A program made the translations under genes and the position numbers. This document shows, piece after piece, positions 40,272-60,540 of a stretch of DNA of 64,000 bases (its first letter is position 1; each line of letters starts with the position of its first letter). A model generated the notes under the pieces. The model was not told the DNA's origin and ran no database searches. It saw only the letters and a program-made list of their open reading frames with translations. The DNA is taken from contig CAJOEP010000003.1 in assembly GCA_905233445.1 (NCBI GenBank), forward strand, positions 1 to 64,000. Direction: 5' to 3'. This DNA comes from an uncultured Bacteroidales bacterium. GTDB taxonomy: Bacteria; Bacteroidota; Bacteroidia; Bacteroidales; F082.

Positions 40272-40332
40272 GCTGTATCGTACAGCGTTTGCATTTTAGT
40301 CGCAAAATTCGTGAATTTTGCGGCTTTTTTTT
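40272..40332 (+). terminator. Double hairpin terminator before the polyene operon
   Basis: A small stem GCTGTA/TACAGC (40272-40286) is followed by CGCAAAATTC (40301-40310), GT, and GAATTTTGCG (40313-40322) with a run of T after it. It insulates the polyene operon from the infB-cotH genes. Confidence 0.85.
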
Positions 40333-40362
40333 GTTTTCTATAGATTTTTTTCATATTTTTGC
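40330..40362 (+). promoter_or_regulatory. Promoter of the aryl-polyene operon
   Basis: TTTG (40330-40333) and TATTTTTGC (40354-40362) are spaced by 20 bases, as in the tRNA-Gln promoter. It directly follows the terminator and lies 37 bases before the TAL ATG. An AGGAG at 40388-40392 is a possible ribosome site. Confidence 0.7.
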
Positions 40363-40399
40363 AAGTTTAAATATAATTAGGTGTAACAGGAGTTTTTTT

Positions 40400-41938
40400 A
40401 TGATTACATTCAAAGACAGGATAACTCTCGACGAAGTAGAAAAAGTTTTGTATTCGGGTGAAAACATTGAGGTTTCCAGCGATTGGCTGGCACGTGTCGA
40501 CGCTTGTTACCGTTTTTTGGAGAAATTTGCGGCCGAGAAAGTGATTTACGGAATCAATACAGGTTTCGGTCCGATGGCACAATGGCGCGTTGATGACCGT
40601 TACCTCACTGATTTACAATACAATATCATTCGCAGTCACGCAACTGGAGCAGGAGAACCACTTGACGATGTATATGTCAAGTCGGCAATGATTGCAAGAC
40701 TTGGAACCGTTTTGCAATGCCGCTCAGGAGTGCATACCGATGTCGCTAAGCTGTTGATTTCGTTTATCAACGAAGGCATCTACCCTTTCATCCCGATGCA
40801 CGGCAGCGTGGGTGCGAGCGGCGACTTAGTGCAGCTGGCACATATCGCGCTCTGCCTCATCGGCGAAGGCGAAGTTCACTACAAAGGCGAGTGGCGTAAA
40901 TCCGCCGACGTGATGAAACAACTTGGTCTTACTCCGCTGAAGATGCACATCCGCGAAGGCTTGAGCATCACCAACGGAACATCAGTGATGACTGGCATCA
41001 GTGTGGTAAATCAGCTGCATGCCGAAAACTTGCTCGACTGGGCTACGTTGGCAGCAGTGTGGATGAACGAGATCGCTGCATCGTTTGACGATTACATGTC
41101 AGAAGGCGAAAATAGCTGCCGTCGTCATGAAGGTCAGCAGGTGATGGCACGCAGGATGCGCGAGCTTTCAGAAGGCTCGAAATGCCTCAAGAAACGCGCT
41201 CATGAACTCTACGACTACGGACATAAAGATGTGAAGGTTTTCGAGCACAAGGTGCAGGCGTATTATTCGCTTCGTTGCACTCCTCAGATTCTCGGTCCGA
41301 TTTATGACACCTTACAAAACGCCCGTCAAATCATTGAAGATGAATTGAATTCGGCATGCGACAACCCTATCGTCGATCCGGATTCGCAATACGTTTACCA
41401 TGGCGGAAACTTCCACGGAGACTATATCTCGCTGGAGGAAGACAAGGTCAAGATTGCTCTCGTACGTCTCTGCATGACAGCTGAACGACAGCTCAACTAC
41501 CTGTTCCATGACCGCATCAACGGCATCTTGCCGCCGTTCCTCAACTTAGGCACACTCGGCTTGAACTACGGAATGCAGGCTTGTCAGTTCACCGCCACCT
41601 CGACAACCGCTGAGTGTCAGACACTTGCGATGCCCAACTACGTGCACAGCATCCCTAACAACAACGACAACCAGGACATCGTGAGCATGGGCACCAACAC
41701 CGCTTTGATTTGCAAGCAGGTGGTCGAAAATTGCTTCCAGGTGATGGCGATACAGTACATCGCTTTGGCGCAGGCGACCGACTGTCTGAAGATTGCCGAC
41801 AAGCTCGCTCCCACCTCACGTAAGGTTTACGACAAGATTCGTGAGATGGTACCGCTCTTCATCGAAGACACGCCGTTCTACAACGACATCGCGAACGTGG
41901 AAAACTATTTGAAAATCAATAAATTGAATCTGATATAA
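40400..41938 (+). CDS. Tyrosine ammonia-lyase (HAL/PAL family), starter enzyme
   Basis: The 512-residue enzyme eliminates ammonia from an aromatic amino acid with the self-made MIO cofactor, from Ala139-Ser140-Gly141 in GSVGASGDLVQL. VIYGINTGFGPMAQ, FTATSTTAE and HSIPNNNDNQDIVSMG are strongly like the Flavobacterium johnsoniae tyrosine ammonia-lyase as I recall it, including LQYNIIRSH (Ser79-His80) at the substrate-selecting loop. That makes p-coumarate from tyrosine the likely reaction; histidine lyase is the main alternative. I chose the ATG at 40400, since the longer frame begins upstream of the promoter. First gene of the pigment operon. Confidence 0.85.
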   Translation: MITFKDRITLDEVEKVLYSGENIEVSSDWLARVDACYRFLEKFAAEKVIYGINTGFGPMAQWRVDDRYLTDLQYNIIRSHATGAGEPLDDVYVKSAMIARLGTVLQCRSGVHTDVAKLLISFINEGIYPFIPMHGSVGASGDLVQLAHIALCLIGEGEVHYKGEWRKSADVMKQLGLTPLKMHIREGLSITNGTSVMTGISVVNQLHAENLLDWATLAAVWMNEIAASFDDYMSEGENSCRRHEGQQVMARRMRELSEGSKCLKKRAHELYDYGHKDVKVFEHKVQAYYSLRCTPQILGPIYDTLQNARQIIEDELNSACDNPIVDPDSQYVYHGGNFHGDYISLEEDKVKIALVRLCMTAERQLNYLFHDRINGILPPFLNLGTLGLNYGMQACQFTATSTTAECQTLAMPNYVHSIPNNNDNQDIVSMGTNTALICKQVVENCFQVMAIQYIALAQATDCLKIADKLAPTSRKVYDKIREMVPLFIEDTPFYNDIANVENYLKINKLNLI

Positions 41939-41939
41939 A

Positions 41940-42668
41940 ATGAAATACGCTCTCATCACCGGTGCCTCACGCGGCTTGGGAAAAGCTGTTGCCATCCGCC
42001 TCGCAAAAGACGGTTTCTCGGTGATTATCAATTATCAGTCGAATAAAGAGGCTGCAGAAGACACCTTGAGACAGGTGCAGGGACTCGGTGGCACTGGCGA
42101 GCTTTTGCCTTTTGATGTCGCTGATCCTCAAGCGATTGAGGCTGCACTAGAAGGCTGGCAAGCCGCTCATCCAGATGACTATATCTCCGTTTTGGTGAAT
42201 AACGCCGGCATCCGCAAAGATAACCTCATGGTTTTCATGCAAGATGAAGAATGGAACAAAGTCCTCGACACCACCTTGAACGGATTCTTTTACATCACTC
42301 GCCGACTGCTGAAAGACATGATGATGCACCGTAATGGTAGAATCATCAATATGGCTTCGTTGTCAGGAATCAAAGGACTTCCGGGACAAGCCAACTACTC
42401 GGCGGCAAAGGCAGCGCTTATTGGAGCGACTAAAGCACTGGCACAAGAAGTGGCAGCACGAAAAGTCACCGTCAACGCCATCGCACCGGGATTCATCGCG
42501 ACGGACATGACAAAGGAGTTAAACGAGACCGAACTGAAGAAGCTCATCCCGATGGGACGTTTCGGAAAACCTGAAGAAGTGGCAAGTCTAGTGTCATTTT
42601 TAGCATCCGACGAGGCAGCGTATATCACAGGTCAGGCAATCTCCATAAACGGAGGATTATACACTTAA
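41940..42668 (+). CDS. 3-oxoacyl-ACP reductase (FabG-like), polyene ketoreductase
   Basis: The 242-residue SDR has TGASRGLGKAVA, NNAGIRKDNL, the catalytic Ser-Tyr-Lys in MASLSGIKGLPGQANYSAAK, and a FabG-like end (PEEVASLVSFLASDEAAYITGQAISINGG). In aryl-polyene pathways this enzyme reduces the beta-keto group on ACP after every extension. It starts one base after the ammonia-lyase stop and precedes the first ketosynthase, so it belongs to the operon and is not the housekeeping fabG by context. Confidence 0.9.
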   Translation: MKYALITGASRGLGKAVAIRLAKDGFSVIINYQSNKEAAEDTLRQVQGLGGTGELLPFDVADPQAIEAALEGWQAAHPDDYISVLVNNAGIRKDNLMVFMQDEEWNKVLDTTLNGFFYITRRLLKDMMMHRNGRIINMASLSGIKGLPGQANYSAAKAALIGATKALAQEVAARKVTVNAIAPGFIATDMTKELNETELKKLIPMGRFGKPEEVASLVSFLASDEAAYITGQAISINGGLYT

Positions 42669-42678
42669 TTCGCAAATT

Positions 42679-43905
42679 ATGGCAAGAAGAGTAGTCATCA
42701 CCGGCATGGGCATCTGGTCGTGCCTGGGAAAAAATAAAGAAGAAGTCAGCATGGCGTTGCGCGAAGGCAAATCGGGCATCGGCATCGACCCACAGCGTAT
42801 CGAATACGGCTATCGTTCGCCTCTGACAGGCATTGTTGAGAAGCCACAGCTTAAAGGCAAACTCGACCGCAAGCTCCGCATGTACCTTGCCGAGGAAGGC
42901 GAATATGCTTACATGGCGACATTGGAGGCTTTCGAACAGGCAAAAATCACCAAAGAATATCTCTTAAACAACGAGATTGGCGTGCTTTTCGGCAATGACT
43001 CTTCTGCAAAAGCTGTCATCGAGTCGCATGAGATTGCTTTGGAGAAAAAAGACACCACTTTGGTTGGCTCATCAGCGATCTTCCAGTCGATGAACTCCAC
43101 CGTGACAATGAACCTCTCGACAATCTTCCACCTCAAAGGCATCAACATGACAATCAGTGCCGCCTGTGCAAGTGGCTCACACTCAATAGGTTTAGGTGCT
43201 TTACTGATTAAAAACGGCTTGCAGGATATGGTGCTTTGCGGCGGCGCTCAAGAGACAAATTATCTCTCAATGGGCAGCTTCGACGGCATCAGCGCATTCT
43301 CAACAAGAATAGATGATCCGACAAAAGCCTCTCGTCCATTCGACCGCGACCGCGACGGCCTCGTTCCAAGCGGCGGCGCAGCAGCATTAGTACTCGAAGA
43401 CTACGACCATGCCATCGCTCGTGGTGCTACGATTTTAGCTGAAGTCTGCGGCTACGGGTTCTCGTCGAACGGCGAAAACCACATCTCACAACCAAGCGAA
43501 GACGGATGTTATCGTGCCATGTCGCGTGCCATGAAAGAAGCTGGCGTCGAAGCAAAAGACATCGACTACGTAAACGCTCATGCTACATCAACACCGCAAG
43601 GCGACATGTTCGAGGCAATGGCGCTGAAACGACTCTTCAGTCCTACTCAAACCCCGATTTCATCAACGAAATCGATGACCGGGCACGAATGCTGGATGGC
43701 GGGCGCCAGCGAGATAGTCTACAGCATCCTCATGATGAAAGGCAAATTCATCGCCCCGAACATCAACTTTGAGCACCCCGATGAATATTCCGAAGGTTTG
43801 AACATCATCAACAAGACGACAGACAAAGAATTAGACACTATTCTTTCCAACTCATTCGGTTTTGGTGGAACGAATAGTGCATTGATAATCAAGAAAATAC
43901 ATTAA
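42679..43905 (+). CDS. Beta-ketoacyl-ACP synthase 1 of the polyene operon
   Basis: The 408-residue FabF-like ketosynthase has the full catalytic set: Cys163 in SAACASGSHS, His in NAHATSTPQGD, and His in KSMTGHECWMAG, plus LSNSFGFGGTNSALI at the C-terminus. It would extend ACP-bound acyl chains with malonyl-ACP. ACASGS with Met-Thr-Gly-His-Glu-Cys-Trp differs from typical FabF, consistent with specialised substrates. It is 10 bases after the ketoreductase. Confidence 0.9.
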   Translation: MARRVVITGMGIWSCLGKNKEEVSMALREGKSGIGIDPQRIEYGYRSPLTGIVEKPQLKGKLDRKLRMYLAEEGEYAYMATLEAFEQAKITKEYLLNNEIGVLFGNDSSAKAVIESHEIALEKKDTTLVGSSAIFQSMNSTVTMNLSTIFHLKGINMTISAACASGSHSIGLGALLIKNGLQDMVLCGGAQETNYLSMGSFDGISAFSTRIDDPTKASRPFDRDRDGLVPSGGAAALVLEDYDHAIARGATILAEVCGYGFSSNGENHISQPSEDGCYRAMSRAMKEAGVEAKDIDYVNAHATSTPQGDMFEAMALKRLFSPTQTPISSTKSMTGHECWMAGASEIVYSILMMKGKFIAPNINFEHPDEYSEGLNIINKTTDKELDTILSNSFGFGGTNSALIIKKIH

Positions 43906-43907
43906 AT

Positions 43908-45005
43908 ATGAAATTGTTTCCAGGCCTCGAGAAGGCATATACGAAAGAGCACAAACGCGCTGGTGAAGCACAGGAGATGGCATATTTCATCGCCTTCGGT
44001 CCTATCATCTTCCAAGTTGGACGTTTGATGATAAAATTCGGCATCCTCGACATGCTTCGCGACAGCGAAAAAGGCATGACGATGGCTGAGATAGCAGCAA
44101 AGACTGGACTTTCCGACTACGCCGTAAAGGTCTTGATGGAAGGCTCTCTCTGCATCGGATTGGTAATTTTGGACAAAGACACCGACCGTTTCACCATGTC
44201 GAAGACCGGTTTCTTCCTCCTCACTGACCCCGCCATCCGCGTGAACATCGACTTCAACCACGACGTCAATTACGAAGGCTGGTTTAAGCTCGCAGAGGCT
44301 CTGAAAGAAGGAAAACCTGCAGGTTTGGAGCATTTCGGCGACTGGCCGACGATTTATGAAGGTCTTTCGCAACTGCCGGCAGACGTGCAGAAGAGCTGGT
44401 TCGGATTCGACCATTTCTACTCAGACCACTCTTTCGACCAAGCATTGCAGATTGTGTTCAGCAACAAGCCGAAGACCTTGCTCGACGTTGGCGGAAACAC
44501 TGGCCGTTGGGCTTTAAAATGCGTTGATTTCGATGAAAATGTCAACGTCACCATCATGGATCTACCTCAGCAGCTCGATATGATGAAGAAATACACCAAA
44601 GGCAAGAAAGGCTTCGAACGAATCGACGGCTATGGAATCAATTTGCTTGACAAAGCTCAGCAGTTCCCGACAAACAAGCATTACGACATCATCTGGATGA
44701 GCCAGTTCCTTGACTGCTTTGGCGAAGACGAGATTTTGAGCATAGTTTCAAGAGCTGCGAAAATCATGAATAAAGACAGCCGTTTGTGCATCATGGAGAC
44801 ATTCTGGGACCGCCAGAACTACCCTGCCGCCGCTTTCGCGTTGACGATGACATCGTTGTATTTCACAGCATTAGCTAATGGAAACAGCAAGATGTATCAT
44901 TCCGACGATATGGAACGTCTCGTGAAGAAAGCAGGTCTGGAGGTTGAAACGATTCATGACGGATTGGGACACGGCCACAGCATTATGATTTGCAAGAAAA
45001 AATAA
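43908..45005 (+). CDS. SAM-dependent methyltransferase (O-methyltransferase-like)
   Basis: The 365-residue protein has an N-terminal winged-helix/dimerisation part (about 60-110; MTMAEIAAKTGLSDYAVKVLMEG) and a class I SAM-binding domain with LLDVGGNTGRWALK near residue 190, ending GHGHSIMICKK. This matches the COMT-like plant/bacterial O-methyltransferases, which methylate phenolic or small acid substrates. In the operon it may methylate the aryl head group or the ring. The true position is unknown. Confidence 0.8.
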   Translation: MKLFPGLEKAYTKEHKRAGEAQEMAYFIAFGPIIFQVGRLMIKFGILDMLRDSEKGMTMAEIAAKTGLSDYAVKVLMEGSLCIGLVILDKDTDRFTMSKTGFFLLTDPAIRVNIDFNHDVNYEGWFKLAEALKEGKPAGLEHFGDWPTIYEGLSQLPADVQKSWFGFDHFYSDHSFDQALQIVFSNKPKTLLDVGGNTGRWALKCVDFDENVNVTIMDLPQQLDMMKKYTKGKKGFERIDGYGINLLDKAQQFPTNKHYDIIWMSQFLDCFGEDEILSIVSRAAKIMNKDSRLCIMETFWDRQNYPAAAFALTMTSLYFTALANGNSKMYHSDDMERLVKKAGLEVETIHDGLGHGHSIMICKKK

Positions 45006-45009
45006 AATG

Positions 45010-45037
45010 GTAGAGACGCACGGCCGTGCGTCTGTAC
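45010..45037. repeat. GAGACG-family palindrome within the operon
   Basis: Arms GTAGAGACG (45010-45018) and CGTCTGTAC (45029-45037) enclose the perfect palindrome CACGGCCGTG. It occupies most of the 63-base gap between the methyltransferase and the first ACP, the longest non-coding gap of the main operon. Confidence 0.85.
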
Positions 45038-45068
45038 AGATTAAAATGAATATCAAACATTTCAAAAT

Positions 45069-45311
45069 ATGAATAGACAAGAAATTGAAGCAAAAGTCAG
45101 AGAGTTCATGGTTGAGGACCTTGAGCTTGACGAAGAGAAGATTAAGCCGGAGGCTCGTCTGAAGGAAGACATCGGCATCGACAGTCTCGATTTCGTTGAC
45201 ATCGTGGTCATCGTCGAACGCAAATTCGGTTTCAAGATCAAGACCGAAGAGATGGCTAATGTCAAGACATTCAATCAGTTCTGCGATTATATTGAGAAGA
45301 AGACGGCCTAA
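45069..45311 (+). CDS. Acyl carrier protein 1
   Basis: The 80-residue ACP carries the phosphopantetheine serine in DIGIDSLDFVDIVV and is strongly acidic. In the aryl-polyene system two distinct ACPs are usual, one for chain growth. It follows the palindrome and precedes the LpxL-like acyltransferase by two bases. Confidence 0.93.
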   Translation: MNRQEIEAKVREFMVEDLELDEEKIKPEARLKEDIGIDSLDFVDIVVIVERKFGFKIKTEEMANVKTFNQFCDYIEKKTA

Positions 45312-45313
45312 GT

Positions 45314-46207
45314 ATGGCAGAAGCACTGCAACATAACGAATGGTCGGGCAAGACTGACGGACAGCCTTGGATGCAGCGATCGCTCATCACCATTTTCCGT
45401 GTAGTGCCTTTGTGGCTACCTTACGGAATTATGGCGTTGGTGGTGCCTTTCTATATGATTTTCAATAGGAAAGGCTACAAGGCGATGTATCGTTTCTTCC
45501 GCGATAGGTTCATTTTTGGACCTTGGAAATCGTTTTGGAAGGTCTATGCCAACCATTTTAAATTCGGTCAGATTATATTGGACCGTTTCGGCGTGTATGC
45601 AGGCAAAAAATACCGTTTCATCACTGAGGGTCAAGAACTTATGGATGAATTGGAGAAACATCCTGAAGGATTTGTAAACTTAAGCAGTCATGTAGGCAAC
45701 TATGAGATAGCAGGTTATTCATTAAAGCCTAAATCAAAGAGATTCAACGCTTTAGTGTATGCTGGTGAGACGGCGACAGTGATGGAAAACCGTCAGAAGA
45801 TGCTTTCGCAGAACAACATGAGCATGATTCTGGTTAGAGAAGACATGTCGCATCTGTTCGCATTGAATTCTGCCATCGACAATGGAGAAATTGTCAGTAT
45901 GCCCGCAGACCGCATCTATGGCTCGCAAAAAGCTGCAGAATGTGAATTTTTTGGCGAGAAAGTGAGATTTCCGTTAGGAGCCTTCGCCTTGGCGGCACAA
46001 AAAAACGTATCGATGCTTGCTGTATTCGTGATGAAGGAAGGTTACAAGACATATCACGCCTATGTTCGTGAAATTCAATGTGATAGAGATGCAAAGATAC
46101 GTGAGCAGATGAATCAGCTGGCACAAAATTTCGCAGAGAACCTCGAGGAAATCGTGAGAAAATACCCTACGCAATGGTTCAACTATTTTGATTTTTGGAA
46201 ACAATGA
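45314..46207 (+). CDS. LpxL/HtrB-like acyltransferase
   Basis: The 297-residue protein has one N-terminal membrane segment (LPYGIMALVVPFYMIF) and the LpxL/HtrB-type motif LSSHVGNYEIAGY (H-x4-E) near residue 125, followed by SMPADRIYG. Family members transfer acyl chains from ACP onto lipids at the inner membrane. In aryl-polyene clusters such acyltransferases are thought to attach the polyene to a lipid anchor. Its stop overlaps the next gene by ATGA. Confidence 0.8.
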   Translation: MAEALQHNEWSGKTDGQPWMQRSLITIFRVVPLWLPYGIMALVVPFYMIFNRKGYKAMYRFFRDRFIFGPWKSFWKVYANHFKFGQIILDRFGVYAGKKYRFITEGQELMDELEKHPEGFVNLSSHVGNYEIAGYSLKPKSKRFNALVYAGETATVMENRQKMLSQNNMSMILVREDMSHLFALNSAIDNGEIVSMPADRIYGSQKAAECEFFGEKVRFPLGAFALAAQKNVSMLAVFVMKEGYKTYHAYVREIQCDRDAKIREQMNQLAQNFAENLEEIVRKYPTQWFNYFDFWKQ

Positions 46208-46641
46208 GAAAAATCGAGGACATAACGCTAAACGAACTGTTGCCGCAGCGACCGCCATTCGTGATGATTGACAGGCTGGTGTCGTGCGACGAAGTGTTTG
46301 CTGTGACCGAGTTGGCCGTTCGTGAAGATAATATTTTCATTGATAATGAACGACTTACATCTTCAGGATTGATTGAAAACATAGCTCAAACATGCGCAGC
46401 GAGGATAGGTTACATCAATCTTAACAAAGGCGGAACGGTGAAAATCGGGGTCATAGGAGCGATTAGCAACCTTGATATTGCAAGAACTCCAAAAGTTGGT
46501 GAGAAACTTGTGACAACGATAGAATTGATTAGCGAAGTCATGCAGATGACACTGGTTGAGGCCGTAGTAAGAATCGGTGATGAGGAAATAGTCCGCGCCA
46601 GCATGAAAATAGCGTTAACTGATAAAGAATCAAAAGATTAG
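46204..46641 (+). CDS. Hotdog-fold dehydratase-like protein (ApeP type)
   Basis: The 145-residue hotdog protein starts MRKIEDITLNELLPQRPPFVMIDRL. After NERLTSSGLIENIAQTCAARIGYI it lacks the HFPGxPIxPG motif that holds the catalytic His of FabZ. This resembles the ApeP-type accessory dehydratases of aryl-polyene clusters, which look similar. It may act together with the canonical dehydratase at 51797-52174. The ATG at 46204 overlaps the preceding stop, so I used it in preference to the upstream in-frame codon. Confidence 0.72.
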   Translation: MRKIEDITLNELLPQRPPFVMIDRLVSCDEVFAVTELAVREDNIFIDNERLTSSGLIENIAQTCAARIGYINLNKGGTVKIGVIGAISNLDIARTPKVGEKLVTTIELISEVMQMTLVEAVVRIGDEEIVRASMKIALTDKESKD

Positions 46642-46643
46642 CA

Positions 46644-47762
46644 ATGATAGTCTGTGTAGCGCATAATATCATCTCGCCACTCGGCAGCAACTCTGCGGAA
46701 AACTACGCCGCCGTGAAGTCGGGCAAGTCTGCATTGAGAAAATACGACGGACTTTGGGGCTTGCCAGAGCCTTTCGTGGCATCATTGCTTGACAGAAACG
46801 CTTTCACAGACAAAAGATATACAATTGACGAACAGATTGTAATCGCTTCAATATCAAAGGCTTTAAAGCAAACAGACATTGATGTAAAATCGTCGAAGGT
46901 GCTTTTCATCATTTCGACCACCAAAGGCAACGTTTTTTTACTTGACAAAAACGAAAACGTTTTTCCCCAAGAGAGAATTCGCCTCGGAGTTATGGCAAGA
47001 GAGGTGACCAAGCACTTTGGCAATCCCAATGAGCCCATCATAGTGTCAAATGCTTGTATTTCAGGCGTTTGTGCACAGATTGAGGCAATGCGATATCTTG
47101 AAAGCGGGGAATATGACTATGTCGTCGTGTGCGGCGTGGATGTACAGTCGTCGTTCATTGTGTCTGGTTTTCAGTCGTTTAAGGCACTTTCACCCGTCGA
47201 ATGCAAGCCTTTCGATGCAAACAGACAAGGTTTGAATTTAGGTGATGCCGCCGCCACTATCATATATACAAAAAAAGATAAAGTTAATGATAATGAATGG
47301 GTTGCATGTCGTGGAGCAATTAGAAACGACGCCAACCACATCTCAGGACCGTCAAGAACCGGTGAAGGCAGTTTTAGAGCTTTGAGAATCGCTTTAGGCG
47401 ACCTCGAACCTGAAAAACTGGCATTCATCAACGCACATGGAACAGCTACGCCATACAACGACGAGATGGAGTCAATAGCCATTGAAAGAGCGGGTTTGGC
47501 TGGCGTTCCCGTAAACTCGATGAAAGGATATTACGGTCACACAATGGGAGCGGCAGGAGTTCTCGAAACCATCATCTCAATGCAGGCTGTAGATGACCAT
47601 AACATATTGGGTACCAGAGGTTTCGACACTTTAGGAGTGACACATCCTCTCGTTGTATCAAATCAAAACAGAGCGACCGAAAAACGCACTTTCATCAAGC
47701 TTTTATCTGGATTTGGAGGCTGTAATGCGGCACTTCTCATGGCGAAAGGAGGTCTCAAATGA
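46644..47762 (+). CDS. Beta-ketoacyl-ACP synthase 2 of the polyene operon
   Basis: The 372-residue ketosynthase is shorter than FabF (about 410). It keeps Cys138 in VSNACISGVCAQ, His in NAHGTATPYNDE, and His in KGYYGHTMGAAG, and ends LLSGFGGCNAALLM. The whole catalytic triad is therefore present. The ACISGV loop differs from the ACASG of ketosynthase 1, hinting at a different acyl substrate. It overlaps the next gene by ATGA. Confidence 0.86.
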   Translation: MIVCVAHNIISPLGSNSAENYAAVKSGKSALRKYDGLWGLPEPFVASLLDRNAFTDKRYTIDEQIVIASISKALKQTDIDVKSSKVLFIISTTKGNVFLLDKNENVFPQERIRLGVMAREVTKHFGNPNEPIIVSNACISGVCAQIEAMRYLESGEYDYVVVCGVDVQSSFIVSGFQSFKALSPVECKPFDANRQGLNLGDAAATIIYTKKDKVNDNEWVACRGAIRNDANHISGPSRTGEGSFRALRIALGDLEPEKLAFINAHGTATPYNDEMESIAIERAGLAGVPVNSMKGYYGHTMGAAGVLETIISMQAVDDHNILGTRGFDTLGVTHPLVVSNQNRATEKRTFIKLLSGFGGCNAALLMAKGGLK

Positions 47763-48316: not shown

Positions 48317-48347
48317 ATCTTTAAATTTTGAATTTTAAATAATAGTT

Positions 48348-50855: not shown

Positions 50856-50857
50856 TT

Positions 50858-51211
50858 ATGTGGAGATTATTGGAATTGGTAGCGGTACAGACGTTTTTCC
50901 TCACTGGCGGTCAGGTTTTCCTGAAGCTAGCAATGGAAAAACTCCCTAAATTTGAATGGTCATGGGCATATTTCAAAGCCGTTTTGGTCGATTGGTGGCT
51001 GCTTGCATGCGGTATCAGCTTCGGCGCAGCTACGGTTTTGTGGCTTTACATACTCAAAAAATTCCCATTCAGCCAAGCATATCCCCTCACAAGCCTCTCA
51101 TTCGTGTTCGGGATGATTGCTGCGTGGTTGGTTTTCGGCGAAGCTGTACCTCTCTCCCGTTGGATTGGCTTGATTTTAGTTGTCTCAGGCTGTTTCTTAA
51201 TTATGAAATGA
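50858..51211 (+). CDS. Small DMT/SMR-type membrane protein
   Basis: The 117-residue protein has four membrane helices (LELVAVQTFFLTGGQVFLKLA, WWLLACGISFGAATVLWLYIL, YPLTSLSFVFGMIAAWLVFGE, WIGLILVVSGCFLIM), like EamA/SMR and ArnE-ArnF-like small transporters. PLTSLSFVFGMIAA with a conserved Glu near VFGEAVPL supports this. It could help flip the polyene-lipid or its carrier. A good Shine-Dalgarno, GGAGG (50846-50850), stands seven bases before the ATG, rare in this window. Confidence 0.78.
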   Translation: MWRLLELVAVQTFFLTGGQVFLKLAMEKLPKFEWSWAYFKAVLVDWWLLACGISFGAATVLWLYILKKFPFSQAYPLTSLSFVFGMIAAWLVFGEAVPLSRWIGLILVVSGCFLIMK

Positions 51212-51212
51212 C

Positions 51213-51806
51213 ATGAAAAAGTTATATATCATTGGTTTTCTGATGCTTACAAGCATTTTCAGCTTCGCTCAATCTGAAGAAGAAGTGATGAATATGTTAA
51301 CTCAGACAGCCGCCTCAATGCAATGCATGAATTGTCGTTTTACGCAACAAAAAACAATGGCGATGCTTGAGCAACCGACTGTGGCAGAAGGACTTATGAG
51401 TTATAATTCACCAGATAAGATGCGTTGGGAATACACTTCGCCCTACTCTTTCGCACTTTTAGTCGATGGTGAGAAAATCACAAAAATAACCGACGGCAAC
51501 GAAGAGGTTCTTGACGCGAAATCAGGAAGGATGTATCAAGGCATTGTGAACATCATCATGAGTAGCGCAACGGGCAAAAAACTATTCGACAAATCAATGT
51601 TTGATGTAGTGATTACTGACGATGGCGAGTTTTGGAAATCCGAGATGAAACCCAAGAAAAACAACATGAAACGAATGTTTTCGATGCTTATTTTTTATTT
51701 TGGTAAAGACAACAACATCATCAACAAAGTCGAAATGGTTGAATCTGGCGGTGACGTGACTACAATACAATTTTATGACATGAAAATCAATGAGTTATGC
51801 GACTGA
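51213..51806 (+). CDS. LolA-like outer-membrane lipoprotein carrier protein
   Basis: The 197-residue protein has a signal peptide (MKKLYIIGFLMLTSIFSFAQ) and the LolA fold: CRFTQQKTMAMLEQPTVAEGLMSYNSPDKMRWEY, FALLVDGEKITKITDG and FDKSMFDVVITDDGEFW. LolA shuttles lipid-modified molecules through the periplasm. Aryl-polyene clusters typically encode such a carrier, so it probably moves the finished pigment to the outer membrane. Its last codons overlap the next gene's start. Confidence 0.85.
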   Translation: MKKLYIIGFLMLTSIFSFAQSEEEVMNMLTQTAASMQCMNCRFTQQKTMAMLEQPTVAEGLMSYNSPDKMRWEYTSPYSFALLVDGEKITKITDGNEEVLDAKSGRMYQGIVNIIMSSATGKKLFDKSMFDVVITDDGEFWKSEMKPKKNNMKRMFSMLIFYFGKDNNIINKVEMVESGGDVTTIQFYDMKINELCD

Positions 51807-52174
51807 CGGAAGGCTTCTTCATAGTTGAAACAACAAACGACACGGAAAACGGTTTTGAGGCTGTTTTGCGCACAAATCCGGAGCATCCGATTTACAAGGC
51901 GCATTTCCCTGGAAACCCAATAACACCAGGCGTTTGCATCATTCAAGCTGCTGGAGAATTACTCGAAAACCAGCTTGGTCGCAAGCTCTATCTGAAAACC
52001 GTCAAAAATGTAAAGTTTCTGTCGGTCATCATTCCGGAAGAAGGTAAAAAAATAAAATATAGTTTTTCAAACATTATTGAAGACGACAGCATTGTTAAAA
52101 CTCAGGTTTTGGTCAGCGATGATGCCGCCGTTTACGCAAAAATATCATTGATTTTCAGCAATGTACGACTCTAA
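51797..52174 (+). CDS. FabZ/FabA-like 3-hydroxyacyl-ACP dehydratase (ApeI type)
   Basis: The 125-residue hotdog protein has the canonical motif EHPIYKAHFPGNPITPGVCIIQAAGE, including the catalytic His of HFPGNP and the downstream acidic residue. It would dehydrate the beta-hydroxyacyl-ACP at each polyene cycle. The start at 51797 overlaps lolA by 10 bases. The next gene starts within its last codons, so lolA, this gene and the GT2 gene are translationally linked. Confidence 0.88.
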   Translation: MRLTEGFFIVETTNDTENGFEAVLRTNPEHPIYKAHFPGNPITPGVCIIQAAGELLENQLGRKLYLKTVKNVKFLSVIIPEEGKKIKYSFSNIIEDDSIVKTQVLVSDDAAVYAKISLIFSNVRL

Positions 52175-52910
52175 GACATCGAAAATCTGCGTGGTGATGC
52201 CGACCTACAATAACGATGGCACGCTACGTGACGTGGTGGAACACACTTTGCAGTTCTGCCCCGATGTCATTGTCGTAAACGACGGATGCACAGACACTTC
52301 CGCTGAAATTTTGGCTTCATTTGGCGAACATATCATTGTTGTCGATTACGGAAAAAACCGCGGCAAAGGCTATGCTTTAAAACAAGGTTTCAGAAAAGCC
52401 AAGGAACTCGGTTTTGATTATGCTATTACGATTGACTCCGACGGTCAGCATTTTCCAGAAGATATTCCATTGTTTATCAGTGCGTTAGAACAGCATCCTA
52501 ATGCTTTGATAGTTGGAAGTCGTAACTTGAATGAGGAAAACATGCCTGGAAAAAACACTTTCGCGAACAAGTTTTCAAATTTCTGGTTTAAGATTCAAAC
52601 AGGCGTAAATTTGCCTGACACACAGACCGGCTATCGTCTGTATCCATTGAAAAACCTTCTGAATCTGAGGTTTTTGACTTCAAGATACGAGGCTGAACTT
52701 GAACTTTTGGTAGGAGCGGCTTGGCGTGGAACCGATTTGATTCCCATTAAAATAAATGTGTTTTATCCAAAAGCCGAGGAACGCGTGTCGCATTTCCACC
52801 CGTTTTGGGATTTCTTGAGAATCAGCGTGTTAAACACGTTTTTGTGCTTTTTGGCAGTAGTCTATGGACTGCCTTCACGCTTTATCAGAAGAAGGAGGCA
52901 TCATGACTAA
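52161..52910 (+). CDS. Family 2 glycosyltransferase
   Basis: The 249-residue GT2 has KICVVMPTYNNDGTL, VIVVNDGCTDTSAE, and DSDGQHFPED with the DxD-like motif, then DTQTGYRLYPLKNLL. The C-terminus (RISVLNTFLCFLAVVYGLP) is a hydrophobic segment, as in dolichol-phosphate-mannose-synthase-like enzymes. It probably adds a sugar to the pigment or to a polyprenyl carrier. Its stop lies inside the start of the MMPL gene. Confidence 0.85.
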   Translation: MYDSKTSKICVVMPTYNNDGTLRDVVEHTLQFCPDVIVVNDGCTDTSAEILASFGEHIIVVDYGKNRGKGYALKQGFRKAKELGFDYAITIDSDGQHFPEDIPLFISALEQHPNALIVGSRNLNEENMPGKNTFANKFSNFWFKIQTGVNLPDTQTGYRLYPLKNLLNLRFLTSRYEAELELLVGAAWRGTDLIPIKINVFYPKAEERVSHFHPFWDFLRISVLNTFLCFLAVVYGLPSRFIRRRRHHD

Positions 52911-55900
52911 GTTTTTCCTTAAAATTTATGATTTTCTGTCAGGAAAGAAAGCTTTGTCAATATTTATTTTATTGATAATTACTGCTTTATGCGTCTTTTC
53001 CGCCTTAAAATTGGACTATAAGGAAAACATCGCCGACTTTTTGCCGACAGATCCAGAAAAGGAAAAATACACCTCGGTTTACGATGACTTGAGCAATCAA
53101 GGAAAAATCACCGTCATCTTCTCAGGCAACGACATTAATGAATTGATGAACGCCGTTGATGACTTCGAAACTAATTGGACAAAACTAGATACAGCATTAT
53201 TAGTCAATGATTTACGCTGCAAAGTTGACGAAAGTCTTGTCTTTGATGCCATCGATTTTATGCGGCAAAATCAGCCGTTGTTTTTGACTGACGACGACTA
53301 TAAGCGCATGGATTCGCTGCTTGCTGAGCCTAATTATATTGCCACTTGCATGCAAAACATCAAGCGAATGCTGGCATTCCCAACGGCGAGCATCCTAATT
53401 GAAGGCGTACAAGCTGATCCATTGAACTTGTATTCGCCTGCGCTTCAACGACTTAACGCATTAAATGCTACTGAAGGTTATCGTATGGAAGACGAATATC
53501 TTTTCAACGAAACTGGTGACAAAGCATTTGCATTCTTCTCATCTCCTTTCAATGGTAATGACACCAAAAACAATGCGATTTTAGTCAATTTGATGGAAAA
53601 TGTCATCAAATTGACTTCAGAATGCCATCAAAATGTTAAAATATCGGCAGTTGGAGCCCCGACGATAGCCGTCACCAACGCACAGCAGATTAAAAACGAC
53701 AGTTTTCTTTCTATTGCCTTGGCTATTGTTCTGATTTTCAGCATTTTAATGTTCACGATGGCAAAAAAACGCAACCTCTTGTGGTTAGGTTTGTCAATCA
53801 TCTTCGGCTGGATTTTCGCATTGGCTGTCATAGCGCTTTTCAAAACAAGCATCTCTATTATCGTCGTGGGCATCGGTTCAGTCATTGTTGGCATTGCCGT
53901 GAATTACCCATTGCATTATCTCGACCATATCAAGCAGGAACCTAACAAACGCGAGGCGCTGAAAGATGTCATTCAGCCATTAGTCATCGGCAACATCACC
54001 ACGGTCGCTGCTTTTGCCTGCCTGATTTTCGTCAAAGCCGAGGCCATGCACGATTTGGGACTTTTCGGAGCCCTAATGCTCATTGGAACCATACTTTTTG
54101 TGATGATTTTCCTGCCTTTGTTCGCCGTTTCACCTAAAAAAACGCACAAACTTTTCGTTGACAACGGCAAGAAACAATCAGAAAAATGGCGCAAAATAAA
54201 ACTCTACGCTTTCTGGCCAATCGTACTTATCACATTGATACTCAGTTATTTCAGCCAAAATACAGCCTTTGATTCCGATTTGCACAACATCAATTTCATG
54301 ACAGAACAGCAGAAAGAGGATTTGGCGGTTTTGAACGAATCTTTAAATAAAACAGGCGAAAGCGAGTTGATTTATGTGGTGGCGGAAGGAAAAGATTTGG
54401 AGGAGGCTTTGGAAAAAAATGAAGAAATTATTTCATCATTAAAGCTCTCCTATAACTTTGAGATCTCCAAGTACTCTATTTCTGGCTTAAACAGCTTACT
54501 CCCATCCATTGAAAAGCAACGCCAATCACTAGAAAAATGGGCTGAATTTTGGAATAATCACGCAGAAACAGCAGAAACAATAGAAAAAGAAGCTGTAAAA
54601 GCCGGATTTACTAGCAAGGCATTCTCAACTTTTACCCAAAACATTGACAAACAATATGTTACAAAACACCCAAGCGAAATGGAGGCTTTGACGGAATTGT
54701 GCAAGACTTACATTTTACAGCATGATTCTTTAACGAGAATTGTCAACTTTGTGCGCGTTCCTGTTGAAGAGTCGGAGGCAATGAAACAACAGTTCAGACA
54801 GATGGCCGTTCAACAGGCTGATAAACCAGCTAAAACCGATGCTTTCGCTTTCAGCATCAGCGATGTGGGCAACAACCTCGTCAACGCACTTTCCGATGAC
54901 TTCGACTACATTTTATACGTTTGCAGCATTGTGGTATTCTTCTTCCTTTGCTTGTCGTTAGGACGTTTGGAGCTGTCGATTCTAGCATTCCTCCCATTGA
55001 CCATCGGTTGGGCTTGGATATTGGGAATCATGGACTTAAGCGGAATAAGATTCAATATTGTAAACATCATTTTAGCAACATTTATCTTCGGTCAGGGTGA
55101 CGATTACACTATTTTCATCACCGAAGGGCTGCTTTACGAGTATGCATATGGCAAAAAAATGCTGAAAAACTACCGCAACAGCGTTATTTTATCCGGTATT
55201 TTGATGTTTATTGGCATCGGAACACTGATTTTCGCTAAGCATCCTGCGATGAAGTCGTTGGCAGAAGTGGCAATCATCGGAATGGCAACAGTCGTGTTCA
55301 TGGCATGTTACCTCCCTCCTATCGTGTTCGGCTGGCTAACCAAGAAAAAAGGCCAACTACGTGAAGTGCCATTGACGCTGAAACGCATACTTTACACAGG
55401 TTTAACGCTGCTGGTTTTCTTCGTCGCCGCATTCGTCATCGTCACACCTTTGACATTGATTTACATGGTGTTATGGCCCAAAACCAAGAACAAACGCTAT
55501 CGTTATCACCAGATGATTGCTACTTTTATGCGCATAGCTTTGAAACTGCTGCCTGGAGTAAAATTCCATCTTGAAAACAATTTTGGCGAGAAATTCGACA
55601 AACCCGCTGTCATTATCGCAAATCATCAGTCGCACCTCGACCTGTTGTGTGTCATGATGTTACATCCAAAAGTCGTGATAATGACCACCGACTGGGTATG
55701 GCGCAACCCGATTTACGGAGTCATCATTCGTTTTGCTGAGTTTTATCCAGTTTCAGACGGCTACGACAAAAATGTGGAACGTTTGCAAAGCCTAGTAAAA
55801 CGTGGCTATTCCATTGTCGTATTCCCAGAAGGCACACGTTCGGTTACAGGTGAGATTCTCCGTTTCCACAAAGGTGCTTTCCAACTTGCACAGGCTTTAA

Positions 55901-56454
55901 ATATTGATATTTTGCCGGTTTTCATCCATGGTGTTCACGATGTGATGCCGAAAAATGATTTCGTTTTACGCGAAGGCCAAATTTATGTTGAAATAGGACA
56001 AAGAATGGCAGCGGAAGAAGCTAAATCAATGGAAACCAAGGCTTTAAGATCATATTTCCACGAGTTTTATATCAAGCATTTTGAAGAAATAAGGAAAGAA
56101 CATGAAAAGGTTGACTATGTCTTGCCTCTCGTCAAGTACAAATATATATATAAAGGTAATGATGTGGAACATGCCGTTCGAGCTAATTTGAAGAAAATCA
56201 AAGCGCATGCAACAGAGCTTAACGCATTGAATTACAATAGTATAGCAGTCGCAAATAGCGGTTTTGGAGAACTCGCATGGGCAATTGCTTTGGCGCATCG
56301 CAACACTCAAGTTTATGCATTTGAAAAAGATGAGGACAAATATTTGATTGCATTGCATTGCAGCTATATACCAGATAATCTGCATTTTGTTAATGATGAT
56401 AAAATCTTGACAAAATACAATTATATAATTGATAATCAACTATTTACAAAATGA
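52903..56454 (+). CDS. MMPL/RND exporter fused to a PlsC-type acyltransferase and a C-terminal domain
   Basis: The 1183-residue protein has an RND/MMPL exporter part (about 1-850): a first helix at about 18-35, a periplasmic domain, a helix group (about 265-425), a second periplasmic domain and a second helix group (about 660-830; GRLELSILAFLPLTIGWAW, FGQGDDYTIFITEGLLYEY). Then comes a PlsC acyltransferase with IIANHQSHLDLL (about 907) and VFPEGTRSVTG (about 974). The last 85-100 residues (NSIAVANSGFGELAWAIALAHRNTQVYAFE) look like a partial Rossmann fold. AAGGAGG (52892-52898) precedes the ATG. It probably exports and acylates the pigment lipid. Confidence 0.82.
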   Translation: MTKFFLKIYDFLSGKKALSIFILLIITALCVFSALKLDYKENIADFLPTDPEKEKYTSVYDDLSNQGKITVIFSGNDINELMNAVDDFETNWTKLDTALLVNDLRCKVDESLVFDAIDFMRQNQPLFLTDDDYKRMDSLLAEPNYIATCMQNIKRMLAFPTASILIEGVQADPLNLYSPALQRLNALNATEGYRMEDEYLFNETGDKAFAFFSSPFNGNDTKNNAILVNLMENVIKLTSECHQNVKISAVGAPTIAVTNAQQIKNDSFLSIALAIVLIFSILMFTMAKKRNLLWLGLSIIFGWIFALAVIALFKTSISIIVVGIGSVIVGIAVNYPLHYLDHIKQEPNKREALKDVIQPLVIGNITTVAAFACLIFVKAEAMHDLGLFGALMLIGTILFVMIFLPLFAVSPKKTHKLFVDNGKKQSEKWRKIKLYAFWPIVLITLILSYFSQNTAFDSDLHNINFMTEQQKEDLAVLNESLNKTGESELIYVVAEGKDLEEALEKNEEIISSLKLSYNFEISKYSISGLNSLLPSIEKQRQSLEKWAEFWNNHAETAETIEKEAVKAGFTSKAFSTFTQNIDKQYVTKHPSEMEALTELCKTYILQHDSLTRIVNFVRVPVEESEAMKQQFRQMAVQQADKPAKTDAFAFSISDVGNNLVNALSDDFDYILYVCSIVVFFFLCLSLGRLELSILAFLPLTIGWAWILGIMDLSGIRFNIVNIILATFIFGQGDDYTIFITEGLLYEYAYGKKMLKNYRNSVILSGILMFIGIGTLIFAKHPAMKSLAEVAIIGMATVVFMACYLPPIVFGWLTKKKGQLREVPLTLKRILYTGLTLLVFFVAAFVIVTPLTLIYMVLWPKTKNKRYRYHQMIATFMRIALKLLPGVKFHLENNFGEKFDKPAVIIANHQSHLDLLCVMMLHPKVVIMTTDWVWRNPIYGVIIRFAEFYPVSDGYDKNVERLQSLVKRGYSIVVFPEGTRSVTGEILRFHKGAFQLAQALNIDILPVFIHGVHDVMPKNDFVLREGQIYVEIGQRMAAEEAKSMETKALRSYFHEFYIKHFEEIRKEHEKVDYVLPLVKYKYIYKGNDVEHAVRANLKKIKAHATELNALNYNSIAVANSGFGELAWAIALAHRNTQVYAFEKDEDKYLIALHCSYIPDNLHFVNDDKILTKYNYIIDNQLFTK

Positions 56455-57929
56455 AGACTTGCATTGTCGTAGGTGGTGGTATTGGCGGACTCGTGACAGG
56501 TGCCTTACTCGCAAAAGAAGGCTATAAAGTTACCGTTTTGGAGAAAAATGCTATCATTGGAGGCGGCCTGCAGACTTTCAAGCGCAACGGCGTGAGTTTC
56601 CCGACAGGCATGCACATCTTCGGAGGCTTCAACGAAGGCGGTAACCTTAAGCAAATATTTGATTATCTTGACATTACGGATAAATTAAAACTAAAGGCGA
56701 CGGACAATGAAGCTTGCGATGTGGTGACAATTGCCGAAGACAACGCGACATATTATCTTCCGAAAGGCAAGGAAAATCTTATAAATTATCTTGCAAAAGT
56801 ATTTCCTGAAGAGAGTGAAAATATCAAAAATTACCTCGAAAAACTCTTTGAATTGTCGCAGGAAGAAGACCTTTTCTACCTTCGTGAAAGCCTTTCTGGT
56901 TCGAAGGCCATGGATCTGAGCGAAGACTTCCTAAAGCCCTATAATCTGCTGATTACCAATTATATAAGCAATCCAAAATTAAGAAGACTGTTAGGATATC
57001 TCAGTCCCCTGTTTGGTGGCGTTGAAGACATTACCCCTGCATTTTTCAATGCACTTTTGAGTGTTCTTCACATCAGTGGCACGTTCCAGTTTTTGAATGG
57101 CAGCCAGCAGATGGCCGATTTGCTGAAAGAAGTGATAGAAAATGGTGGCGGAAAAGTGATTCCAAACGAGGAAGTTGTCAAAATAAACGTTGATAATCAT
57201 TTGGTTACAAATGTTATAACCCGAAATGGCAATACTTTCAAAGCCGACAATTATATCTCTGACGTTCATCCGGACGTGCTACTCAAAATAATCTCTGACG
57301 ACGCTTTCACAACAGCTTTCAAAAAAAGAATCCATTCAATTCCCGAGACGTCATCGAGTTTTAAAGTTTATATAAAATTCAAAGACAAATCTTTTAAATA
57401 CGTCAACCATCCTTGCTATTATATTGATAATCAAAAAGATTGGCCAAACCAATACATGTACGTGACGCCTCCGATTGAGAATCAGAGCGATTTTGCGGAA
57501 ACGATGATAATCATATGCATGATGGACTTCGCGCAGGTAAAAAAATGGGAAGACACTAAAACCGGACATCGTGGTGAAGATTACGAGCTCTGGAAACGCG
57601 ATATGACTGAAAAAGTTCTCAATAGGTTGGATAGGATTTATCCGGATTTCCGCAGCTGCATTGAATTTTTGTTTGCCTCCTCCCCTCTTACAATACGCGA
57701 TTTTTACGGTAACAAAGAAGGTTCCAACTATGGTTTCTTAAAAGACAGCCACGACATGATGCTTTCGCAAATGTCAGTGTTTACTAAGGTTAAGAATCTT
57801 TTCTTGACCGGACAGAACGTCAACATCCACGGCTTATGCGGCGTTTCGCTGACGGCCATCCAGACTGCCGAAGCACTTGTCGGACATAACGAAATTGTTA
57901 GAAAAATCAACAAAAAAAGTTCAATTTAA
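56451..57929 (+). CDS. CrtI/phytoene dehydrogenase-like FAD oxidoreductase
   Basis: The 492-residue protein has the FAD-binding motif VVGGGIGGLVTGALLAKEG then TVLEKNAIIGGGLQTF, a HIFGGFNEGGNLKQ region, and the C-terminal NLFLTGQNVNIHGLCGVSLTAIQTAEALVG. CrtI-like enzymes desaturate or isomerise long conjugated chains, and homologues are annotated in flexirubin clusters. It may set the final conjugation or oxidise the aryl ring. It overlaps the MMPL gene by ATGA and is the last gene of the main operon; I see no terminator after it. Confidence 0.82.
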   Translation: MKTCIVVGGGIGGLVTGALLAKEGYKVTVLEKNAIIGGGLQTFKRNGVSFPTGMHIFGGFNEGGNLKQIFDYLDITDKLKLKATDNEACDVVTIAEDNATYYLPKGKENLINYLAKVFPEESENIKNYLEKLFELSQEEDLFYLRESLSGSKAMDLSEDFLKPYNLLITNYISNPKLRRLLGYLSPLFGGVEDITPAFFNALLSVLHISGTFQFLNGSQQMADLLKEVIENGGGKVIPNEEVVKINVDNHLVTNVITRNGNTFKADNYISDVHPDVLLKIISDDAFTTAFKKRIHSIPETSSSFKVYIKFKDKSFKYVNHPCYYIDNQKDWPNQYMYVTPPIENQSDFAETMIIICMMDFAQVKKWEDTKTGHRGEDYELWKRDMTEKVLNRLDRIYPDFRSCIEFLFASSPLTIRDFYGNKEGSNYGFLKDSHDMMLSQMSVFTKVKNLFLTGQNVNIHGLCGVSLTAIQTAEALVGHNEIVRKINKKSSI

Positions 57930-60503: not shown

Positions 60504-60506
60504 AAT

Positions 60507-60540
60507 TGACTCGCGTCCCGTGTCTATAAGTCACACGTCA
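60507..60540. repeat. GACTCGCGTCCCGTGTC dispersed repeat
   Basis: This sequence before the PaaK-like gene contains GACTCGCGTCCCGTGTC and AGTCACACGTC, related to the junction repeat at 49794-49860 in the KS-CLF gene. Confidence 0.5.

What the first reader, a model, noticed from the sequence alone, without database searches (positions are those of the whole stretch)
40330..57929. Complete aryl-polyene/flexirubin-type pigment operon in a Bacteroidales-type genome
One promoter, 17 genes on the same strand and many ATGA/TAATG overlaps encode tyrosine ammonia-lyase, ketoreductase, ketosynthases, two ACPs, two dehydratases, methyltransferase, acyltransferases, LolA carrier, exporter and CrtI-like enzyme. 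Seen in sequence: gene order, motifs, promoter and insulating terminator. Known: similar parts make aryl polyenes and flexirubins, pigmented antioxidant lipids of the outer membrane. Inference: this organism makes one from tyrosine-derived p-coumarate. The mix of genes (methyltransferase, KS-CLF fusion, exporter-acyltransferase fusion) is not one I recognise as characterised.
Basis: partly seen in the sequence, partly recalled or inferred. Interest (0 to 1): 0.8.

Follow-up and report, generated by a model that had tools for sequence, protein, structure and literature searches.

The report
Aryl-polyene pigment gene locus, resorcinol-free
This stretch of a Bacteroidales genome carries a known type of gene set for making a yellow, tyrosine-based membrane pigment (flexirubin-type aryl polyene), apparently without the usual resorcinol half and with an unstudied radical-SAM enzyme beside it.

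Summary
In detail: 17 same-strand genes (40400-57929) behind a hairpin terminator and a Bacteroidetes-type promoter. They form a flexirubin-type (flx) aryl-polyene locus of known kind: four proteins pass NCBI's curated flexirubin cut-offs (FlxA, FlxB, FlxJ, LolA2), and 12 of 17 match the E. coli ape cluster. The four KS/CLF domains group with flx-cluster homologues, not with the genome's FabF. The methyltransferase and the exporter-acyltransferase fusion are usual; the KS-CLF fusion varies within the genus. Two corrections. (1) The locus is larger: a second block, 57977-62963, encodes a radical-SAM protein, a small partner, an esterase, the missing coumarate-CoA ligase (FlxY orthologue by synteny and tree) and an acyltransferase. 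(2) No DarB (resorcinol synthase) was found in the genome (88% complete), so the product is probably an aryl-polyene lipid, not a true flexirubin; 23 of 46 sampled Bacteroidales with FlxA also lack DarB. New details: the 47759 ORF looks like a miniature chain-length factor, and the radical-SAM gene lies beside flx/dar-type genes in 16 of 18 further genomes read (of 22 with a copy); the library searches found no description of it. Ordinary as a finding; interesting in those two parts.

The parts
40298..40325 (+). Intrinsic-terminator-like hairpin (12 pairs) with T run, insulating the upstream CotH gene
   Evidence: sequence
40330..40361 (+). Bacteroidetes-type promoter TTTG-N20-TATTTTTG
   Evidence: 10 in window against 2.45 expected
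40400..41938 (+). FlxA tyrosine ammonia-lyase
   Evidence: NF053541 836 bits, cut-off 700; GSVGASGDL MIO motif, HAL-like SH at motif 1 and Q (own HAL: E) at motif 2
41940..42668 (+). FlxB ketoreductase (SDR)
   Evidence: NF053542 411 bits, cut-off 340; 46% to E. coli ApeQ
42679..43905 (+). KS1, FabB-like ketosynthase (best ape match ApeR, but not grouped with ApeR in the tree)
43908..45005 (+). FlxJ-family methyltransferase (aryl-ring methylation inferred)
   Evidence: NF053543 595 bits, cut-off 560; 46% to ApeB
45069..45311 (+). Acyl carrier protein 1 (ApeF-like)
45314..46207 (+). LpxL-type acyltransferase
   Evidence: PF03279; matches acyltransferase half of ApeJ
46204..46641 (+). Dehydratase 1 (FabZ-like, weak similarity)
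   Evidence: below cut-off; no Pfam hit
46644..47762 (+). KS2 ketosynthase with Cys-His-His (ApeO-like)
47759..48316 (+). Probable mini chain-length factor, presumed partner of KS2
   Evidence: no Pfam/NCBIfam hit; AF2 pLDDT 87; best PDB matches ishigamide CLF and ApeC; no Cys or His among invariant columns; same ORF as KS2 in L057
48348..48605 (+). Acyl carrier protein 2 (ApeE-like, 51%)
48606..50855 (+). KS-CLF fusion: active-site-bearing ApeO-like KS plus CLF without the triad
50858..51211 (+). EamA/ArnE-F-like small membrane protein (possible flippase)
   Evidence: ArnE/F models below cut-off
51213..51806 (+). LolA2, flexirubin-type lipid carrier
   Evidence: NF053544 148 bits, cut-off 125
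51797..52174 (+). Dehydratase 2 (FabA/ApeI-like)
52161..52910 (+). GT2 glycosyltransferase (N-terminal half of ApeJ)
52903..56454 (+). MMPL/RND exporter fused to PlsC-type acyltransferase (ApeM+ApeD)
   Evidence: same fusion in most relatives
56451..57929 (+). CrtI/CrtD-like FAD oxidoreductase (single copy; two domains in many relatives)
57977..59281 (+). Radical-SAM protein, perhaps cobalamin-binding, part of the locus
   Evidence: PF04055 over cut-off, B12-binding below cut-off; CX3CX2C invariant in 19 rows; co-occurrence and synteny
59278..59640 (+). 120-aa conserved protein of unknown family that follows the radical-SAM gene
59640..60503 (+). BD-FAE-type esterase
   Evidence: conserved place in genus
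60556..61854 (+). FlxY orthologue (by synteny and tree): PaaK-type ligase, likely 4-coumarate-CoA ligase
61854..62963 (+). PlsC-type acyltransferase, follows the ligase

Best explanation
The locus (40400-62963, 22 genes) makes and exports a methylated aryl polyene by the flexirubin/APE route, but without the dialkylresorcinol half. Proposed order of events: FlxA deaminates tyrosine to p-coumarate; the PaaK-type ligase at 60556 (FlxY) activates it; the acyl group is loaded on ACP; KS1 and two KS-CLF pairs (the fused KS-CLF, and KS2 with the mini-CLF) extend it with malonyl units; FlxB and two dehydratases turn each step into a conjugated double bond; FlxJ methylates the ring. LpxL-type, PlsC-type and GT2 enzymes join the polyene acid to a (glyco)lipid anchor, and the MMPL exporter and LolA2 carry it to the outer membrane, where it would act as a pigment and antioxidant. 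Shown here by comparison: family membership, gene order, KS phylogeny, FlxY orthology by synteny and tree, absence of DarB from the assembly. Inferred: every reaction in this organism, the KS2/mini-CLF pairing, the lipid anchor and the antioxidant role.
For: NCBIfam flexirubin equivalogs over cut-off. Matches of 12 of 17 proteins to the E. coli CFT073 ape cluster, whose mutants are published (PMC8253772, passages seen). C. pinensis FlxA and FlxY were assayed in vitro (PMC3992019, parts 1-2 of 5 read); the window's FlxA has the motif mix that paper reports (HAL-like motif 1, TAL/PAL-like motif 2). KS tree. FlxY: copies of 48-58% identity lie in or beside flx genes in six of the eight more distant genomes fetched; the 20 ligases labelled as flx-associated form one side of a branch (95/87) against 8 other PaaK-like proteins. 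Copies of 75% identity or more occur in 9 of the 10 FlxA+ genomes among 40 and in 1 of 30 FlxA- genomes. DarB: 0 of 40 relatives, own included, over cut-off; own genome has one KASIII.
Against: No pigment, transcript or enzyme datum exists for this organism. The assembly is 88% complete, so DarA/DarB on a missing contig cannot be ruled out (C. pinensis also keeps dar apart from flx, PMC3992019). DarA was searched only in the window, not genome-wide. A thioesterase, LolB2 and polysaccharide deacetylase found in other flx clusters have no match in the window. E. coli ApeR does not group with KS1 in the tree although BLAST pairs them. G007 has the ligase without detected FlxA (72% complete).
Confidence: 0.85

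Rival explanations
1. It makes a classical flexirubin: the dar genes lie elsewhere in the genome, in a part not assembled.
For: FlxA, FlxB and LolA2 carry flexirubin names in NCBIfam; in the order sample 23 of 46 FlxA+ genomes also carry DarB at E 1e-40 or better; completeness is 88%; G277 has a DarB-like gene (499 bits, below cut-off) on another contig (C2:983121) than FlxA (C1:1128914).
Against: No DarB over cut-off in own or any of 39 relatives, among them FlxA+ genus members of 98-100% completeness (G011, G015, G021); G418 of the same genus (99% complete) has FlxA and no DarB.
Confidence: 0.1
2. The genes form a specialised fatty-acid or other type II polyketide route, not an aryl polyene.
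For: KS, ACP, KR and DH parts resemble fatty-acid enzymes; a FabG and two ACP models are passed; KS1 groups next to E. coli FabB.
Against: KS domains group with flx homologues at 98-100% support and apart from the genome's two FabF-type KS; the aromatic starter genes FlxA and the ligase co-occur; FlxB and FlxJ pass curated flexirubin cut-offs.
Confidence: 0.04
3. The second block (57977-62963) is only a neighbour and not part of the pathway.
For: A 47-nt gap and a TATCTTTG promoter-like element precede it; the radical-SAM protein is absent from 29 of 46 FlxA+ genomes in the order sample, and 7 of 24 genomes with it have no FlxA over cut-off (one of these, G364, has FlxA in two pieces); two of 18 radical-SAM loci have no recognisable flx neighbours and a third (L165) shows only the rest of this block and a DarH-like gene.
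Against: No terminator-like site in the gap; the ligase belongs to flx clusters elsewhere; radical-SAM at 94% or more in 7 of 8 FlxA+ and 0 of 16 FlxA- genus genomes; 15 of 18 radical-SAM loci from other genomes hold core flx/dar genes such as lyase, KS, CrtI or exporter.
Confidence: 0.1

Closest known systems
Flexirubin (flx) gene cluster of Chitinophaga pinensis / Flavobacterium johnsoniae (PMC3992019)
   Same: FlxA TAL, FlxB, FlxJ, several KS, LolA, glycosyltransferase, exporter; PaaK-type ligase as FlxY candidate; much gene order shared with flx clusters of unnamed class relatives
   Different: No DarB in the assembly and no match in the window to DarA, DarG, DarH, LolB2, C45 acyltransferase, thioesterase or polysaccharide deacetylase of relative G146; adds radical-SAM plus 120-aa protein, EamA-like gene and esterase; KS and CLF fused. 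The C. pinensis and F. johnsoniae sequences themselves were not compared
E. coli CFT073 / Xenorhabdus aryl-polyene (ape) cluster (PMC8253772)
   Same: KR-ApeQ, MT-ApeB, ACPs-ApeE/F, KS1-ApeR, KS2-ApeO, KS-CLF to ApeO/ApeC, LolA-ApeL, DH2-ApeI, GT2 and LpxL-type to ApeJ, MMPL-AT to ApeM/ApeD (CFT073); no dialkylresorcinol in that product (general knowledge)
   Different: Starter would be made from tyrosine by FlxA and activated by a PaaK-type ligase instead of ApeH acting on 4-hydroxybenzoate; one extra KS-CLF pair; CrtI-like and radical-SAM enzymes
Ishigamide KS-CLF (PDB 6kxd) and ApeO-ApeC (6qsp)
   Same: The 47759 protein's model matches their B chains (read as the CLF) best of the PDB
   Different: Only 185 aa, 14-16% identity, TM 0.57-0.66 on its own length; unknown to Pfam and NCBIfam
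B12-type radical-SAM families HpnJ, BchE, TIGR04013
   Same: Weak similarity, CX3CX2C motif
   Different: All scores far below the family cut-offs (55 bits against 251 for TIGR04013); no PDB sequence relative at E 0.001

Membership tests
Flexirubin-type polyene (flx) cluster | FlxA tyrosine ammonia-lyase over curated cut-off | tested here: met
   836 against 700 bits
Flexirubin-type polyene (flx) cluster | FlxB reductase and FlxJ methyltransferase over curated cut-offs | tested here: met
   411/340 and 595/560 bits
Flexirubin-type polyene (flx) cluster | Flexirubin LolA2 carrier | tested here: met
   148 against 125 bits
Flexirubin-type polyene (flx) cluster | 4-coumarate-CoA ligase FlxY | tested here: inconclusive
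   orthology supported by synteny and tree; activity not tested and the C. pinensis sequence not compared
Flexirubin-type polyene (flx) cluster | Flexirubin LolB2 (present in some flx clusters) | tested here: inconclusive
   no tblastn match in the window to the L058 copy; rest of genome not searched
Flexirubin (polyene esterified with dialkylresorcinol) | DarB (and DarA) present | tested here: not met
   DarB not over cut-off in own genome, one KASIII only; DarA not in the window; genome 88% complete
Flexirubin (polyene esterified with dialkylresorcinol) | Pigment with KOH colour shift and dialkylresorcinol fragment | not testable with these tools
   needs a culture or heterologous host
Aryl polyene (APE) cluster | KS with CLF, second KS, KR, dehydratases, two ACPs, LolA/MMPL export | tested here: met
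   one of the two dehydratases only by weak similarity
Aryl polyene (APE) cluster | KS proteins distinct from housekeeping FabF | tested here: met
Cobalamin-dependent radical-SAM methylase (57977 gene) | Radical-SAM domain with CX3CX2C and a B12-binding domain | tested here: inconclusive
   PF04055 33.6 (cut-off 29.5), PF02310 24.5 (cut-off 32.1); motif invariant in 19 rows; model too poor to use (pLDDT 57)

The most novel reading that the evidence does not exclude
The radical-SAM protein (57977) and its 120-aa neighbour are an oxygen-independent tailoring module for aryl polyenes, seen so far only in Bacteroidales: a cobalamin-dependent radical enzyme that methylates or otherwise remodels the polyene or its anchor in anaerobes, alongside a second KS-CLF pair built on a one-domain mini-CLF.
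Probability: 0.35. Interest if true: 0.6.

Novelty: new variant of a known kind. Interest (0 to 1): 0.38.

Why it matters
[quoted passage not shown] This locus shows what a version in uncultured Bacteroidales looks like: tyrosine-started like flexirubins, resorcinol-free like APE lipids, with a conserved radical-SAM module. It gives a testable target for what such pigments do in anaerobes.

Tried and rejected
Reading the 57977 protein through its fold: the AlphaFold model was poor (pLDDT 57) and was not used; its profile found no PDB sequence. Reading the ligase as an ordinary phenylacetate-CoA ligase: disfavoured by tree and synteny, although PaaK structures are its nearest solved relatives. 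Treating the KS-CLF and exporter-acyltransferase fusions as new: rejected. The KASIII search for DarB needed a control: the same Pfam model does ring on a real DarB (L058), so the single KASIII in the own genome is informative. The profile of the 47759 protein hit a designed repeat protein first (8g8i_A, E 0.00011, no single stretch passing) and the ishigamide B chain second; the first was taken as chance. Paper searches: 'aryl polyene' with 'radical SAM' and 'cobalamin' gave 0 papers; 'flexirubin' with 'Bacteroidales' and 'gene cluster' gave 3, seen as a listing, one of them also by passages. That the radical-SAM part is undescribed rests on these and alone; no subscription literature or preprints were searched. 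Fisher p-values ignore relatedness of genomes and are too small. In one search the label 'flxlocus' is loose for G024 (no recognisable flx neighbours in L095) and G465 (L165 shows only the second block and a DarH-like gene). In one search one weak match (G488, 37%) was dropped from the count of 24.
Full report
Observation. The 17 genes reported between 40400 and 57929 exist, all on the + strand and all open. A 12-pair hairpin with a T run (40298-40325) separates them from an unrelated CotH-type gene upstream, and a Bacteroidetes-type promoter TTTG-N20-TATTTTTG lies at 40330-40361. Six of 16 junctions overlap, three of them as ATGA; the largest gap is 63 nt. The genes are therefore packed as an operon. 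The next gene is on the other strand.

What it is. NCBIfam release 20 has curated equivalog models for flexirubin proteins, and four window proteins pass them: FlxA tyrosine ammonia-lyase, FlxB reductase, FlxJ methyltransferase and LolA2. Against the E. coli CFT073 aryl-polyene cluster, BLAST pairs 12 of the 17: KR with ApeQ (46%), MT with ApeB (46%), ACP2 with ApeE (51%), ACP1 with ApeF, KS1 with ApeR, KS2 with ApeO, the two halves of the KS-CLF protein with ApeO and ApeC, LolA with ApeL, DH2 with ApeI, GT2 and the LpxL-type enzyme with the two halves of ApeJ, and the exporter with ApeM plus ApeD. DH1, the 47759 protein, EamA, CrtI and the lyase have no significant match there. Papers used: PMC3992019 (parts 1 and 2 of 5 read); PMC8253772, PMC8358021, PMC9769736 and PMC6767994 (passages only).

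Ketosynthases. In a maximum-likelihood tree of 27 proteins, KS1, KS2, and the N and C halves of the KS-CLF protein each form a group with the matching proteins from flx clusters of four more distant genomes (100/100, 100/100, 100/100 and 100/98), while the genome's two FabF-type proteins group with E. coli FabF (98/97). KS1, KS2 and the N half keep Cys-His-His; the C half has none of them. E. coli ApeO joins the KS2 and N-half groups (100/99) and ApeC, on a long branch, the CLF group (95/97); E. coli ApeR does not join KS1, which sits next to E. coli FabB (99/98). ApeR is described as FabB-like in the abstract of PMC8358021.

The 185-aa gene at 47759 has no Pfam or NCBIfam hit. Its model (pLDDT 87, pTM 0.83) matches chain-length factors best: ishigamide 6kxd_B (E 1.5e-7, TM 0.66 on its own length, rmsd 6.0) and ApeC 6qsp_B (E 8e-6); ordinary FabF structures follow close behind. 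That the B chains are the CLFs is read from titles and lengths. A profile search finds 6kxd_B too (E 0.0015), behind a designed repeat protein taken as chance. No Cys or His is among its invariant columns. In genome G277 it shares one 579-aa ORF with KS2. I read it as a one-domain CLF that pairs with KS2; PMC8358021 (passages) describes ApeC as a single thiolase domain of half the KS size. The pairing is inferred.

The starter. FlxA has the MIO motif and, at the two specificity motifs, the pattern reported for C. pinensis FlxA: HAL-like SH at motif 1, but Q where the genome's own HAL has E (which residues make up the motifs is recalled). Homologues of 48-58% identity lie in or beside flx genes in six of the eight more distant genomes fetched (G277, G146, G221, G265, G292, G138; not seen in the stretches of G308 and G056, where fewer bases were fetched). 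Twenty ligases labelled as flx-associated form one side of a branch (95/87) against eight other PaaK-like proteins of relatives; two labels are loose (G024 without flx neighbours, G465 with only the second block). Among 40 relatives, own included, copies of 75% identity or more occur in 9 of 10 FlxA+ genomes (the tenth, G019, has a 20-residue fragment at a contig edge) and in one of 30 without FlxA over cut-off (G007); the rest have 31% or less or none.

No resorcinol half. DarB (NF053539) is over its cut-off in 0 of 40 relatives, own included, and the own genome has one KASIII. The same models do find DarB in a flexirubin cluster (L058). In an order-wide sample of 247 genomes, own included, 46 have FlxA over cut-off, 29 have DarB at E 1e-40 or better (22 over its cut-off), and 23 have both, so half of the FlxA+ genomes lack DarB. 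The window also has no match to DarA, DarG, DarH, LolB2, the C45 acyltransferase, the thioesterase or the deacetylase of relative G146. The likely product is an aryl-polyene lipid rather than a true flexirubin. The genome is 88% complete, and DarA was not sought outside the window, so this is strong but not final.

Fusions. The KS-CLF fusion is one ORF of 736 aa or more (stop to stop) in 26 of 50 named loci; in 18 it is split and in 6 cut by a contig end; the lyase was matched in 38 of these 50 stretches. The exporter-acyltransferase protein is one ORF in 33 of the 36 named loci that show it uncut; in L146 the two parts are separate ORFs, and in L143 and L144 only the acyltransferase part was matched; the other 14 stretches end before or within it or do not match it. 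It is one ORF of 1175-1292 aa in the unnamed relatives where it was fully covered. The named loci are all uncultured or metagenome-assembled Bacteroidales or other Bacteroidia; titles that name an animal name ruminants or horses, so the window most likely comes from a similar organism.

The radical-SAM module. The 57977 protein has a radical-SAM domain over cut-off and a B12-binding hit below cut-off; its CX3CX2C is invariant in 19 sequences. In the genus it occurs at 94% identity or more in 7 of 8 FlxA+ genomes (in G016 as two pieces) and 0 of 16 FlxA- genomes. In the order sample, copies of 65% or more are in 24 of 247 genomes, 17 of them FlxA+ (a 25th match at 37% was dropped). Of the 22 such genomes outside the genus I read the stretch around the copy in 18 (G364, G474, G501 and G558 were not fetched): 15 hold core flx/dar genes (lyase, KS, CrtI, exporter or the like), a sixteenth (L165, contig starts inside the gene) holds the ligase, esterase and a DarH-like gene, and two hold none (L168, L175). 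Outside the order it was not seen: in a class sample of 395 genomes, about 380 of them outside the order, only the own genome matched at E 1e-60. A 120-aa protein of no known family follows it in most of these loci. Its reaction is unknown. Against a necessary role: 29 of 46 FlxA+ genomes in the sample lack it.

Verdict. A flexirubin-type aryl-polyene locus of known kind, larger than reported, apparently resorcinol-free, with two components for which I found no description. The pathway assignment is strong; every chemical step in this organism is inferred.

Noticed in passing
window 62972-63045: Four copies of AATTTCGTCACAA at 20-21 nt spacing in the gap after the last gene (0.27 expected with one mismatch allowed). 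Among 176 loci held, a like array was found only in this genome's own stretches, once more on contig C19 (L002, L071).
   Followed up: partly
window 56451-57929; L104-L110, L126, L128-L131 and others: In 18 of 50 named loci two CrtI-like domains form one ORF of about 1000 aa, in 9 they are two ORFs, in 7 there is one, in 16 the stretch is cut or shows none; the window has a single 492-aa CrtI most like the second domain, so one domain seems lost.
   Followed up: partly
L049 (G026): Reduced cluster with lyase, LpxL-type, KS2, mini-CLF, ACP, KS, CLF and ligase, in which the GT2 and the esterase share one 547-aa ORF.
   Followed up: no
L168, L175: Radical-SAM homologues of 67-68% identity without recognisable flx neighbours.
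   Followed up: no
L148: A Bacteroidales locus with two DarG and two DarH matches next to KS, CLF, radical-SAM, esterase and ligase.
   Followed up: no
window 38241-40253: CotH/LTD protein with a Por-type (T9SS) C-terminal sorting domain directly upstream.
   Followed up: no
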